From: Candidatus Gastranaerophilales bacterium
Lineage (GTDB): Bacteria > Cyanobacteriota > Vampirovibrionia > Gastranaerophilales > Gastranaerophilaceae
Assembly (NCBI GenBank): GCA_944322935.1
Contig: CALUQO010000007.1
Location: 1-64,000 of the forward strand
Direction of reading: 5' to 3'
Length of the DNA stretch: 64,000 nucleotides
Under the pieces are notes generated by a model. The model had not been told where the DNA came from, searched no databases, and saw only the letters and a list, made by a program, of their open reading frames with translations. The position numbers and the translations under genes are program-made. Within the stretch, counting starts at the first letter, position 1. Each line of letters begins with the position of its first letter. This document shows, one piece after another, positions 637 to 24,352 of this stretch.

Positions 637-842
637 TATTATAAATTATATCTTTAAATTTTTCAATTCCATAATTACAAATTACAATATATTAACTCGA
701 TATTCTTTTATCACGGAATCAAGCAAAAGTGATTCTTTAGAATCAAAGGTATGATCTAATCTAGTGTCGCAGTTGCTGCCGGCTGACCGCAGCCAGCACC
801 TGCTCCCTTTTGTTCCCTTTTGCCTTTTTTGCCTTCTTTTTC

Positions 843-894
843 CACTCTGCCGAATAAAAGCTGACTAAATGTCAGGCTTTATTTTTATGAGGGG
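843..894. repeat. Hairpin repeat with conserved GACTAAATGTC loop (copy 1)
   Basis: The element reads CACTCTGCCGA, a stem arm, GACTAAATGTC (863-873), the matching arm, then GAGGGG. A second intact copy is at 24305-24352 with the same flanks and loop but different, still complementary, stem arms. A third copy is split by the RAYT element at 23485-24225. Changed but still pairing stems argue that the folded structure is kept. Confidence 0.6.
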
Positions 895-939
895 CTTTGA
901 TTTTGTGAAAATTGTAAAAATGGGGGCTTCACTATGTGA

Positions 940-1155
940 ACAATGTGTCACTCGCCTACACTTAACTTCGTTAAGTTCCGGTGACAGACTCACAAGTATC
1001 GCTTACGCTCTACTGTTCGCTTTGTCAAAAAATTCGTTCACGTCGCTTGGCTCCTTATCACGAATTTTTCTCGAACAAAATATAACTTTTTCAAAAAGTT
1101 CGTACAATGTCCCACAATGCGCCCCATTTTTAGACTCCTTCGGGAGTCTTTTTTA
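940..1155 (+). other. Hairpin tract ending in a terminator; possible small RNA
   Basis: This gene-free stretch holds ACTTAAC-TTC-GTTAAGT (960-976), AAAAATTCGT paired with ACGAATTTTT (1028-1069) and AACTTTTT/AAAAAGTT (1084-1100). It ends in a strong rho-independent terminator, AGACTCC-TTCG-GGAGTCT plus a T run (1132-1155). A plus-strand transcript evidently ends here, but no convincing protein frame precedes it. The rest of 170-1290 shows nothing further that I can support. Confidence 0.4.
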
Positions 1156-7223: not shown

Positions 7224-7263
7224 AGAAAAAAACTCTGCCATTTTTGGAGCGGACGACGGGACT
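7224..7263 (-). repeat. tRNA-Gly 3'-tail copy 1 with its own terminator
   Basis: Bases 7241-7263 repeat the last 19 bases of tRNA-Gly including encoded CCA, plus the following T/A run (23-base identity with 7678-7700). Downstream on the minus strand an AAAAATGCAGA/TCTGCCATTTTT hairpin acts as a terminator-like structure. Its arms differ from those after the real tRNA. Confidence 0.7.
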
Positions 7264-7358
7264 GTCTTGACCTGTTTGCGATAAACGTGCTTCGCTTTTT
7301 GCCTTTATATTGTTAATATACGGCAAAAACGCTTCGCACTCTGCTCACAGGTCGCTCG
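7248..7358. repeat. 111-bp direct repeat, copy 1
   Basis: Identical to 7501-7611 except for one base. It begins with the last 16 bases of the tRNA-Gly complement and contains the internal inverted repeat TTTTTGCC...GGCAAAAA. Confidence 0.9.
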
Positions 7359-7500
7359 CAACGGCAGTCTTGGCGAAGAATGAGCCATAGAGTGCCGGAG
7401 TGCTGGCGGTTTGCAGAGCAAACCGAACAGTAAACCGCAGATGTAGCAAACTTGTTTTGCGTACATATGCGAGAGAGGCAAAAAACTTGCAAAAAAAAAC

Positions 7501-7611
7501 AGCGGACGACGGGACTGTCTTGACCTGTTCGCGATAAACGTGCTTCGCTTTTTGCCTTTATATTGTTAATATACGGCAAAAACGCTTCGCACTCTGCTCA
7601 CAGGTCGCTCG
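7501..7611. repeat. 111-bp direct repeat, copy 2
   Basis: Second copy of the 111-bp unit, 253 bp after the first. It starts with AGCGGACGACGGGACT from tRNA-Gly but lacks the encoded CCA found in copy 1. Between the copies is a GGTTTGC-AGA-GCAAACC hairpin at about 7408-7424. No protein frame in this stretch is credible. Confidence 0.9.
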
Positions 7612-7646
7612 AACCCAAAAAGGGCTTCTCGTCCTTGGCATCCTTG

Positions 7647-7684
7647 CCAAAAAGGACAGTAGGAAAAACCTCTGTCCTTTTTGG
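7647..7684 (-). terminator. Terminator directly after tRNA-Gly
   Basis: CCAAAAAGGACAG (7647-7659) pairs perfectly with CTGTCCTTTTTGG (7672-7684). Read on the minus strand, the stem starts in the CCA of the tRNA and ends in a T run. Confidence 0.8.
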
Positions 7685-7756
7685 AGCGGACGACGGGACT
7701 CGAACCCGCGGCGTCGACCTTGGGAAGGTCGCATTCTACCACTGAATTACATCCGC
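7682..7756 (-). tRNA. tRNA-Gly (anticodon CCC)
   Basis: The minus strand folds as a standard cloverleaf. The acceptor GCGGATG pairs with CGTCCGC, allowing G-U; the D arm includes TTCAGTGGTAGAA; the anticodon stem CGACC/GGTCG encloses TTCCCAA, giving anticodon CCC; the T arm contains GGTTCGAGTCC. U73 is typical of tRNA-Gly, and CCA is encoded. TATAAT lies upstream at about 7770-7780. Downstream, copies of its 3' tail form an array. Confidence 0.95.
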
Positions 7757-17720: not shown

Positions 17721-17977
17721 GTTTCTGCACCTTAACTGATAATAAACTGCTGTTTTGTAATATCGGCACTATTTTAAATAAACTTTAACAAATACCGCAG
17801 AAATATTAAGATTTATTAATACACCGGTATTTTTGTTGTGCTGCGTCGGATGATTTACAATAGCAACTGTAAGTTGTGCTTTCTGATGTGTCCCCCAAAA
17901 AAACGTGATTGACGAGAGGACAATTAATTAATTTATAAAAAATGTTAGATAAACAAATAAAGATTTATACTTTATTT

Positions 17978-18014
17978 GCACCCCATTCTTTTCAAAGGTC
18001 GGCTTTTGAGGTGC
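17978..18014. terminator. Terminator-like hairpin
   Basis: GCACC (17978-17982) pairs with GGTGC (18010-18014), with an inner TCAAA/TTTGA pairing and TTTT after the plus-strand arm. It marks the left edge of the hairpin-dense tract. Confidence 0.4.
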
Positions 18015-18039
18015 TTTTCGTATGAATAGAAATACGCTC

Positions 18040-18660
18040 ATTATAACGGCTCACAAAGTGAGCCGTAGGGGGTTGCCTTCTTTTGCCGTTGAGCTGTGGC
18101 GAAACGTGCAAAATGGCTTCACGACTTCATTATGATATTGCAAATACGCTTGTTCTTTTAATAGTGAACTGGGGCGTAGCCCTGATGGAATACAGTTAGA
18201 GATTTTTAACGAAGGAATGAAAATTTACCGTACCGATTTTATCATTTTGTGAGTGGACGGAAATTTTCGTTTCTGAGTTTTAAAATCTCTTTTGTACAGC
18301 GCCGGTTTTTCTTTTCTTGCTTGAGTCAAGAACTCTACATAAAAGATGCCTGTGGCATGTTTTATGTAGAGGGAAGCAAAGTCAGAAGCGAAGCTTCTGC
18401 TTGCTGTATAACAATTAATACGAGCCGTACGAATCAGGATGCCCTTTAGGGTATGGTTCGTTTTAATTTTTATACTGCACGCAGATACTTCGTATCTGAC
18501 TTAGCATACCTCTATTCAAAATGATACTTAATCATTTTGAACAGAGTTCTTGCAACACAAAAGAAAAGAAATGAACATATAAAAACATAAAAAATAAAAC
18601 GTATTATACGCAACAAACAAAAACAGATTCCACCGTTGCTCAGATTCTGAACAACGTTCT
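18040..18660. other. Hairpin-dense intergenic tract, possible structured RNA
   Basis: No credible protein gene lies between 17721 and 18790. Instead there are many near-perfect hairpins with tiny loops: CGGCTCAC-AAA-GTGAGCCG (18047-18065); GGGC-GTA-GCCC near 18172; a 39-base near-palindrome with a 3-base loop (18333-18371); CAGAAGC-GAA-GCTTCTG (18383-18399); CAGATAC-TTC-GTATCTG (18482-18498); a 15-bp stem with one mismatch (18510-18546); and nested CGTTG/CAACG with TCAGA/TCTGA (18634-18656). No promoter or family could be assigned. It could be one large structured RNA or accumulated small palindromic repeats. Confidence 0.5.
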
Positions 18661-18790
18661 TCGTTATATTACATTATTGGCATTTTGTTGGGAAGGTATT
18701 ATCTGTCCCAAAATCTAAAAGAAATATACCGATACATTACAAAAATATAAAATACTAGCAAAAAATTTTTTTCAGCTGTTTTACCAAAAT

Positions 18791-19378
18791 ATGATTAATG
18801 CATCTTATAATTTCAATACACCATCATTTGGCGGATATAAAAAGGTTTCAATCTCCAAATTGGAAAATTATCTTAAAGAGGGAAAAAACGTTAAAGAAAT
18901 TGCCGCTTTGTTCAATGTCAGTGACGGAACAATTTATAATTTAATGAAAAATTTTAATATAAAAAAACCACAGACCAGAAATGTGGATAACGTTGACAAT
19001 ATTATGAGAAATATTGTCAATCAAAATCTGACACTTGCACAAATGATTAGAATAACAGGGCTAACCAAATATGCAATAGTAAAATGGTATAAAGAACATT
19101 TTGCCGCAACCCCAAAAATATTACAAAAACAAGAAATGCTTACATTGCTGCAAAGCGATCTTACAAATAAAGAAATAGCACAGCAGCTGGATATTTGTAT
19201 CAATACAATAAAGGCTAACCGCCAAAAATATAAACTCGGCAGCCAGAAACGTAAAAGAGAATCTTTAATGAATAAAATACTGGAAAAACTGCATCAGGGA
19301 TTAAACAGATTCCAGATTGCCGAAGAAATCGGTGTTTCATATTCAACTGTTAACAAGTATCTGAGAACACAAAAATAA
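18791..19378 (+). CDS. Protein with four tandem helix-turn-helix units
   Basis: The 195-aa protein appears to be built of four similar helix-turn-helix units of about 40 residues: VKEIAALFNVSDGTIYNLM, LAQMIRITGLTKYAIVKWY, NKEIAQQLDICINTIKANR and RFQIAEEIGVSYSTVNKYL. Each has the I-A-x-x-L/I-x-V-S-x-x-T-I/V pattern of resolvase/transposase-type DNA-binding domains. There is no catalytic domain. The N-terminus carries NTPSFGGYKK, the S-F-x-G motif seen in several proteins of this window. It probably binds a long, repeated or multi-site DNA target. It lies beside the hairpin tract, with no operon partner. Confidence 0.75.
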   Translation: MINASYNFNTPSFGGYKKVSISKLENYLKEGKNVKEIAALFNVSDGTIYNLMKNFNIKKPQTRNVDNVDNIMRNIVNQNLTLAQMIRITGLTKYAIVKWYKEHFAATPKILQKQEMLTLLQSDLTNKEIAQQLDICINTIKANRQKYKLGSQKRKRESLMNKILEKLHQGLNRFQIAEEIGVSYSTVNKYLRTQK

Positions 19379-23507: not shown

Positions 23508-23530
23508 GTAGGTTGGGCTTTCAGCCCAAC
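23508..23530 (+). repeat. Left REP palindrome
   Basis: GTAG followed by GTTGGGCT-TTC-AGCCCAAC, a perfect 8-bp stem with a 3-base loop. The GTAG tetranucleotide before the palindrome is the mark of REP sequences processed by RAYT transposases. Confidence 0.8.
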
Positions 23531-23621
23531 AAAATTAATAGGACACTAATCGGATCCGGAATTTTCTTTGATTTTGGAAGCTTATAGCCTAATTTAAAAT
23601 GATAAGCAACAGAGAGAATAA

Positions 23622-24152
23622 CTATTCAAAATCTATATCTTTAATATTTTCAATATCTTCCGAGCTCCCCCAGTCATTATCATATAAACCCTGTTTTACA
23701 AATTTGTGAAAAGAAGAATACCGCCAGTCCTTTACTTTATTTACAAGTCCGTGCTTCAGTGGATTGTAATGAATGTAATTAATTTGATTGTTTAATTCTT
23801 CTTGATCTTTAATTGTATGTTCAAAAAATCTTCTCTGAAATAAACCTTTTTCCCCTTTATTAACATAACCGTAGGTTGGGGTTTCCACCTCAACATTATA
23901 ATTTTTAGAGAAGTAATATTTTATTGATGTAATAATTTTGGGATATTCTTCAATATTCTCAGGATTTAGTATTACATGTATATGGTCGGGCAAAACACAG
24001 ATTGCAATAATTTCAAAACAAAAGAATTGTTTTGCATTTTTAAAGGCATGTCTTAGTAGTTCGATATTATCCACAAATATACTTTTTCTTTCATAAGAAA
24101 CAACAATTAAATGTACATAACTGTTTTTAATAAAAGCACGTCTGTAGTTCAT
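23622..24152 (-). CDS. REP-associated tyrosine transposase (RAYT, Y1_Tnp)
   Basis: The 176-aa protein is an IS200-like Y1 transposase domain: SYVHLIVVSYERKSIF, then the HUH metal site as LPDHIHVILNPEN, and the C-terminal LFQRRFFEHTIKDQEELNN with HYNPLKHGLVNKVKDWRYSS. These are hallmarks of RAYTs, single-strand endonucleases that bind REP hairpins. The catalytic tyrosine is probably in the C-terminal helical part; I could not fix it with certainty. Oddly, the segment VEVETPTYGY is encoded by a REP palindrome inside the gene (23871-23894). The domestic, non-mobile behaviour of RAYTs is known for the family. Confidence 0.9.
   Translation of the reverse strand: MNYRRAFIKNSYVHLIVVSYERKSIFVDNIELLRHAFKNAKQFFCFEIIAICVLPDHIHVILNPENIEEYPKIITSIKYYFSKNYNVEVETPTYGYVNKGEKGLFQRRFFEHTIKDQEELNNQINYIHYNPLKHGLVNKVKDWRYSSFHKFVKQGLYDNDWGSSEDIENIKDIDFE
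23871..23894 (+). repeat. REP palindrome inside the transposase gene
   Basis: GTAG followed by GTTGGGGT-TTCC-ACCTCAAC, an 8-bp stem with one G-T pair. It keeps the RAYT reading frame open on the minus strand, adding a VEVETPTYG-type peptide. Confidence 0.75.
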
Positions 24153-24181
24153 TTTTTAATTTTATAACAAATATTTTTTTT

Positions 24182-24205
24182 GTTGGGGTAGAAACCCCAA
24201 CCTAC
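24182..24205 (-). repeat. Right REP palindrome, inverted
   Basis: GTTGGGGT-AGAA-ACCCCAAC followed by CTAC, the complement of GTAG. It is the inverted counterpart of the left REP, and the inverted similarity extends outward into CAAACTTGTT. Confidence 0.8.
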
Positions 24206-24231
24206 AAACTTGTTTTCCGAGAGGGGAGAAC

Positions 24232-24291: not shown

Positions 24292-24352
24292 TGGTGCCAC
24301 GTCTCACTCTGCCGAGAAAAACAAGACTAAATGTCTTGTTTTTTGAGAGGGG
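24292..24352 (-). repeat. tRNA-Phe 3'-tail copy joined to intact hairpin repeat
   Basis: TGGTGCCACGTCTC (24292-24305) is identical to the tRNA-Phe acceptor end at 24408-24421. It runs into CACTCTGCCGAG, a hairpin with ACAAG/CTTGT arms and the ACTAAATGT loop (24326-24334), then GAGAGGGG. This is the uninterrupted form of the repeat split by the RAYT element. A short inverted tRNA T-arm piece (GGTTCGATTCCGAG, 24361-24374) follows. Confidence 0.7.

What the first reader, a model, noticed from the sequence alone, without database searches (positions are those of the whole stretch)
17960..18660. Gene-free tract with at least seven near-perfect, tiny-loop hairpins
About 700 bp contain stacked hairpins with 7-17 bp stems and mainly 3-base loops, far denser than in other intergenic regions. 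Smaller examples lie at 940-1155 and 7380-7500. It could be a large structured non-coding RNA or a landing site for palindromic repeats. It lies beside a protein with four helix-turn-helix units, which could bind such DNA.
Basis: partly seen in the sequence, partly recalled or inferred. Interest (0 to 1): 0.6.

Follow-up and report, generated by a model that had tools for sequence, protein, structure and literature searches.

The report
Nested mobile hairpin repeats between genes
The hairpin-rich stretch is one copy of a large family of small, gene-less, palindromic repeats that have inserted into one another throughout the genomes of one genus of gut cyanobacterial relatives, and it carries one module whose fold is conserved as if it works as a folded single strand.

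Summary
The hairpins are real: 6 where 0.3 are expected, and none of 300 shuffles matches. The tract (about 17889-18709) is not unique. About 109 partial copies lie in the same genome (Candidatus Gastranaerophilales), shuffled as modules and often at contig ends; related copies occur in 20 of 23 genomes of the genus. Orthologous loci in sister species show discrete gains: the 96-bp module C inserted cleanly, hairpin tips replaced, whole tracts inverted. I read it as a nested mosaic of non-autonomous foldback elements. The window copy begins with one end of a MITE (terminal repeat TGTCCCCCAAAAAACGTAAT; a complete copy elsewhere duplicates its 4-bp target). It carries a conserved module B, interrupted by C and by a hairpin unit D-E-D'. 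Module B (18164-18300) covaries, keeps fixed G-U wobbles on one strand, and is found only in this genus (17/23 genomes, 1-25 copies; 0 of 95 others). So one part of the tract looks like a folded RNA or single-stranded DNA; the 3' hairpin shows no strand bias. RAYT/REP and the neighbouring HTH protein do not explain it. Other copies are bounded by inverted dif-like (Xer) sites and have flipped. No transcription data exist. What moves module B remains unsolved.

The parts
17889..17997 (.). One end of a MITE-like element ('MITE1'): terminal repeat TGTCCCCCAAAAAAACGTGATTG plus its AT-rich subterminal part
   Evidence: Matches the ends of complete copies L036, L241, L242, L243; 35 such ends in the genome
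18046..18066 (+). P1 hairpin ACGGCTCAC-AAA-GTGAGCCGT, 5' hairpin of module A/B
   Evidence: stem covaries (CTCAC/GTGAG with CTTAC/GTAAG); loop reads AAA or TTT in different copies
18075..18170 (+). Unit C, 96 bp (GCCTTC...GTGAACT), inserted between P1 and P2
   Evidence: Absent at the same place in at least six other copies and at the orthologous locus L076 versus L014; found at several other sites
18164..18300 (+). Module B core: P2 hairpin (GGGGC-GTA-GCCC) and long P3 stem with tandem GA/GA and fixed G-U wobbles
   Evidence: Covariance model hit, 147.9 bits, E 1.7e-33; covariation counts
18306..18319 (+). 5' arm of module B's 3' hairpin (shortened)
   Evidence: Comparison with uninterrupted copies L018, L056, L074
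18320..18555 (.). Unit D-E-D', a large inverted repeat of hairpins inserted in the loop region of module B's 3' hairpin
   Evidence: 18308-18571 matches its own reverse complement at 70%; the hairpin is uninterrupted in other copies
18333..18371 (.). Hairpin, 18-bp stem, loop 3 (in D)
18383..18399 (.). Hairpin, 7-bp stem, loop 3 (in D)
18422..18460 (.). Imperfect hairpin E (GAGCCGTACGAATC...GGTTCG), the recurrent 52-61-bp unit type
18482..18498 (.). Hairpin, 7-bp stem, loop 3 (in D')
18510..18546 (.). Hairpin, 16-bp stem, loop 5 (in D')
18556..18576 (+). 3' arm of module B's 3' hairpin (CACAAAAGAAAAGAAATGAAC), followed by an A-rich tail
18597..18709 (.). Remnant of another dispersed repeat (CAGATTCC...TCAGATTCTGAACAACG...GTTGGGAAGGTATTATCTGTCCC), including hairpin 18634-18656
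   Evidence: Matches L013, L017, L019, L024, L028, L037, L038

Best explanation
The tract is a nested mosaic of small, non-coding, non-autonomous mobile foldback (MITE-like) repeats specific to one Gastranaerophilales genus. Units of about 45-270 bp, each carrying palindromes, repeatedly insert into tracts that already hold such units, so gene-free patches grow, swap hairpins and flip. Shown here: copy number, mosaic order, discrete presence/absence and inversion of units at orthologous loci, and one complete MITE copy with an exact 4-bp target duplication. Inferred: (1) the MITE ends were moved by an IS3-family transposase acting in trans; (2) hairpin arms stay complementary mainly through DNA-level correction such as template switching between arms; (3) module B, the only part with a one-strand signature, is an end structure or RNA of the element that is recognised as a folded single strand.
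For: About 109 partial matches in the own genome, many at contig ends; 20/23 genus genomes match. Mosaic and indel maps. Orthologous filled/empty pairs: L014 versus L076 differ by C alone, in 87-88% identical flanks; L035 versus L199, L200, L201, L202, L204 show units gained and a hairpin tip replaced, in flanks of mostly 88-95% identity. Inversions of whole tracts: L025 versus L086, L026 versus L082, L049 versus L083, and part of the tract in L034 versus L096. MITE1: L243 sits in the loop of hairpin GCCGGCTG-CGGT-CAGCCGGC with CGGT duplicated; the uninterrupted hairpin is in the window near 757-800 and in dozens of other places; 35 ends in G000. Its ends resemble an intact IS3-type element in G004, TGAAGTGTACCC. 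Module B: 98.6% of cells paired, 4 pairs changed on both sides, 37-59% when slid; G-T versus A-C cells 114:6, or 27:6 without two fixed wobble columns.
Against: No transposase that moves module B, C or D was found. G000 holds no rve-type transposase. The window copy has a recognisable MITE end only on its left, and its flanking genes gave no orthologous locus in six close genomes, so this copy has no empty site of its own. All data come from short-read metagenome assemblies, in which repeats can be misjoined.
Confidence: 0.72

Rival explanations
1. Module B is a functional structured RNA (host or selfish) and the rest of the tract is hitchhiking repeats. It would be transcribed from the + strand here and act in trans or as part of the element's movement.
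For: Covariation and strongly conserved unpaired bases; fixed G-U pairs (62-119 in 34/36, 65-116 in 36/36); tandem GA/GA; diverged subfamilies with unrelated stem sequences but the same layout; multi-copy in 17/23 genus genomes. Orientation relative to neighbouring genes flips between species, so a cis-regulatory role is unlikely.
Against: No expression data; promoter-like sites no more frequent than in shuffles (3 found, 3.0 expected); no Rfam family; a one-strand signature could equally come from single-stranded DNA handled by a recombinase.
Confidence: 0.35
2. The elements are Xer-exploiting foldback cassettes: inverted dif-like sites pair when the element is single-stranded and XerCD integrates or inverts it, as for the CTX-phi attP hairpin or dif modules.
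For: 28-bp dif-like sites with central TATTTA or TATGTA in close inverted pairs (26 counted, 128-861 bp apart, median 499), against a single-copy TATATA site per genome that looks like dif. Arms are exchanged in the inverted L025/L086 pair. Module B lies as an inverted pair just inside the sites in L026, L254, L126. CTX-phi attP is the stem of an ssDNA hairpin (PMC4439123).
Against: The window tract has no such sites; many B copies sit in elements with other ends; Xer proteins were not examined.
Confidence: 0.2
3. REP/BIME-type repeats moved by the RAYT encoded about 5 kb away (23622-24152).
For: A genuine RAYT flanked by inverted GTAGGTTGGG REPs is in the window.
Against: The tract hairpins lack that REP; it is absent from the held tract loci of this genome. 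RAYT-type genes occur in 8/23 genus genomes, while module B is abundant in several without one (G005, G006, G011, G017, G019).
Confidence: 0.04
4. Operator array for the adjacent multi-HTH protein (18791-19378).
For: Adjacency only.
Against: The gene is almost confined to this species while the repeats are genus-wide.
Confidence: 0.03

Closest known systems
BOX / RUP / SPRITE repeats of Streptococcus pneumoniae (PMC3049150)
   Same: Genus-limited, gene-less, modular intergenic repeats with strong predicted folding, MITE features and, for BOX, transcription in some cases
   Different: No sequence relation tested or seen; here different unit types insert into one another, whole tracts flip, and one module keeps a covarying fold with a one-strand bias
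BIMEs / REPINs with RAYT (PMC2817692)
   Same: Mosaics of palindromes in intergenic DNA; a RAYT lies nearby
   Different: No GTAG-headed REP of the RAYT's type in the tract and no co-distribution with RAYT
IS3-family MITEs and palindrome-targeting IS (IS1397, ISKpn1; PMC1525189)
   Same: TGT...-type ends, short target duplication, insertion in the loop of a repeated hairpin (L243)
   Different: Loop targeting is not general here: 10 of 118 insertion events against 13% expected
dif / pdif modules (PMC12907356, PMC13141974) and IMEX such as CTX-phi (PMC4439123)
   Same: Inverted dif-like sites around modules; inversion at those sites
   Different: Those held here carry hairpins and module B instead of obvious genes; chromosomal; not present at the window copy

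Membership tests
MITE | Terminal inverted repeats | tested here: inconclusive
   Met for L036, L241, L242, L243; the window copy shows the repeat on the left only
MITE | Target-site duplication | tested here: inconclusive
   CGGT duplicated in L243, with paralogous uninterrupted sites; not demonstrable for the window copy
MITE | No coding capacity, high copy number | tested here: met
MITE | Related autonomous IS | tested here: inconclusive
   IS3-type element with similar tips only in G004
REP/BIME with RAYT | Tract hairpins match the REPs flanking the RAYT | tested here: not met
   GTAGGTTGGG only at the RAYT itself; none in own tract loci
REP/BIME with RAYT | Co-occurrence of RAYT and repeats | tested here: not met
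dif/pdif module | Inverted dif-like sites at both ends | tested here: not met
   Not at the window tract; met at other tracts of the family
dif/pdif module | Recombination by XerCD | not testable with these tools
   Only sequence evidence of inversion with exchanged arms
Structured RNA family | Covariation supporting a consensus fold | tested here: met
   Module B only
Structured RNA family | Match to a described Rfam family | tested here: not met
Structured RNA family | Transcription | not testable with these tools
   No RNA data; promoter scan uninformative

The most novel reading that the evidence does not exclude
A new class of gene-less mobile element in which a conserved folded end module (B), present as an inverted pair inside inverted dif-like sites, lets the host's Xer recombinases capture the element as a single-stranded foldback: a chromosome-borne, coding-free counterpart of integron attC or CTX-phi attP.
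Probability: 0.15. Interest if true: 0.8.

Novelty: new variant of a known kind. Interest (0 to 1): 0.52.

Why it matters
It shows that intergenic DNA in an uncultured gut lineage is filled with an undescribed, actively reshuffling system of nested palindromes. It also warns that these tracts break assemblies and mimic large non-coding RNAs.

Tried and rejected
General insertion into hairpin loops: tested on 118 distinct insertion events, 10 in loops against 13% at shifted control positions, so rejected as a rule although single cases exist. RAYT as the mover: distribution and REP sequence do not fit. Known RNA families: no gathering-level hit in the tract; the weak hits were mostly microRNA models that match long hairpins. 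Viral origin: no exact match of a module B 26-mer in viral contigs. Cis-regulation by module B: orientation flips relative to neighbouring genes. HTH protein as binding partner: no co-distribution. dif-like sites at the ends of the window tract: searched, not found. A literature search for repeats in Gastranaerophilales gave nothing relevant, and one for Melainabacteria with insertion sequences gave nothing that was followed up.

Full report
OBSERVATION. The hairpins are present and far beyond chance: six in 701 bp against 0.31 expected, none of 300 dinucleotide shuffles and no other window of the 64 kb reaching that number; folding z-score -11.3. The tract has no ORF of 80 aa or more.

IT IS A DISPERSED REPEAT. 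Searching the own genome (2.3 Mb, 76 contigs) with the tract gave 109 partial matches in both orientations. Many lie at the very end of contigs (for example C16, C20, C27, C36, C48, C64), as expected of repeats that break assemblies. Among 23 genomes of the genus, 20 have related copies. Named records with an exact module B 26-mer are Candidatus Gastranaerophilales MAGs; viral contigs gave none.

ANATOMY OF THE WINDOW COPY. From left to right: an end of a MITE-like element (17889-17997), hairpin P1 (18046-18066), the 96-bp unit C (18075-18170), the core of module B (18164-18300), the two arms of module B's 3' hairpin (18306-18319 and 18556-18576) held apart by an inverted-repeat unit D-E-D' (18320-18555), an A-rich stretch, and a remnant of another repeat (18597-18709). 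C is absent from the same place in at least six other copies in the same genome.

UNITS MOVE. At orthologous loci with 87-88% identical flanks, G000 (L014) carries C and G006 (L076) does not, with no other large difference in the tract. At another locus (L035, G000) five sister genomes show graded states: nearly empty (L199), other contents (L201, L202, L204), and one with three further units (L200), among them a C unit at a different target; left flanks are 89-95% identical and right flanks 80-95%. In L035 versus L199 the tip of one hairpin is replaced by an unrelated palindrome on an unchanged base. An unbiased list of insertion differences contains 118 distinct events with recurring units.

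TRACTS FLIP. Between G000 (L025) and G011 (L086) the flanks are 95% identical and the 570-bp tract (97% identical) is inverted; the crossover lies in an inverted repeat whose arms are exchanged. L026 versus L082 and L049 versus L083 also differ by orientation, and part of the tract in L034 versus L096 does too. The L025 inverted repeat is GATAA-TATTTA-TTATGT within a 28-bp site that closely resembles a site, GATAA-TATATA-TTATGT, seen once in each of most genomes with conserved arms; the latter is presumably the chromosomal dif (inference from the site and its copy number). Twenty-six close inverted pairs were counted from the listed matches, 128-861 bp apart. The window tract lacks these sites.

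A MITE FAMILY WITH A TARGET DUPLICATION. The left end of the window tract is an end of a MITE found as 35 ends in G000. The copy in L243 is complete and sits in the loop of GCCGGCTG-CGGT-CAGCCGGC with CGGT repeated on both sides; the uninterrupted hairpin occurs in the window near 757-800 and at dozens of places. L241 sits in the centre of another palindrome. The ends resemble an intact IS3-type element in G004; G000 itself has no rve-type transposase. IS1397 and ISKpn1 are known IS3-family elements that insert into REPs (PMC1525189). Loop insertion is not a general rule for the tract units.

MODULE B LOOKS LIKE A FOLDED STRAND. Thirty-six copies aligned on a 39-pair structure give 98.6% paired cells (37-59% when slid), four pairs with changes on both sides, and two G-U pairs that are nearly invariant. 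On 54 copies, G-T outnumbers A-C 114 to 6, or 27 to 6 without the two fixed columns. Related subfamilies keep the layout with different stem sequences. The 3' hairpin also covaries but with G-T 34 and A-C 35, as expected if arms are kept complementary at the DNA level; template switching in quasipalindromes is a known process (PMC7202029, listed; not read further). Loop flips AAA/TTT of P1 fit this too. The covariance model finds module B in 17 of 23 genus genomes (1-25 copies) and in none of 95 genomes outside the genus. In three dif-bounded elements two B modules lie in opposite orientation just inside the sites. G-T tolerance would serve RNA or single-stranded DNA; I cannot tell which.

WHAT DOES NOT EXPLAIN IT. 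The RAYT at 23622-24152 is a real RAYT/REP unit, but its REP is absent from the held own tract loci and RAYT genes do not follow the repeats. The HTH gene is nearly species-specific.

CONCLUSION. Best reading: a nested mosaic of non-autonomous foldback elements, with one conserved folded module whose role (RNA, or single-stranded end structure) is open. The kind (interspersed mosaic / MITE-like repeats such as BOX or BIME) is known; these families appear undescribed (no Rfam hit and nothing in the literature searches made), and the combination with a strand-specific module and dif-like ends is unusual. Main weaknesses: short-read assemblies, no RNA data, no identified recombinase, no empty site for the window copy itself.

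Noticed in passing
L025, L026, L251, L253-L258 and listings: Inverted pairs of dif-like sites (central TATTTA or TATGTA) are multi-copy on chromosomes throughout the genus, always with the TTATGT arms inside in the pairs counted; the modules read contain hairpins rather than obvious genes.
   Followed up: partly
window 23508-24230: A RAYT gene flanked by inverted GTAGGTTGGG REPs appears inserted in the loop of hairpin AAAAACAAG-ACTAAATGT-CTTGTTTTT, an intact copy of which lies at 24317-24343.
   Followed up: partly
window 7240-7756: The 3' end of the tRNA gene at 7685-7756 (GAGCGGACGACGGGACT) is repeated at about 7246 and 7503 with attached 110-bp direct repeats, like nested integration scars at a tRNA gene.
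   Followed up: no
L014 1128-1246 and 1835-1954; L076: A tract sits directly after a hexapeptide acetyltransferase-like gene, and 120 bp of that gene's 3' end is repeated directly on the far side of the tract, in two species.
   Followed up: no
G000 tracts versus relatives: For many tracts only one flank is found next to the orthologous place in sister species, as if tracts coincide with rearrangement breakpoints; no control was run.
   Followed up: no
window 757-1150: A second dispersed repeat (GTGTCGCAGTTGCTGCCGGCTG... to ...GTTCGAGAAAAATTCGTGATAAG) with its own hairpins; dozens of copies in G000 and G011.
   Followed up: partly
window 18791; L036; L024: Unrelated proteins beside tracts begin with a short tail containing PSFGG, PSFG or SFKG (for example MINASYNFNTPSFGGYKK), perhaps a lineage-specific N-terminal signal.
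   Followed up: no
L091 7580-7754; L142 511-778: A further unit (TGTCTGAGTGGGACC...) has inserted into the P3 stem of a module B copy with a 3-4-bp overlap, breaking the fold.
   Followed up: no
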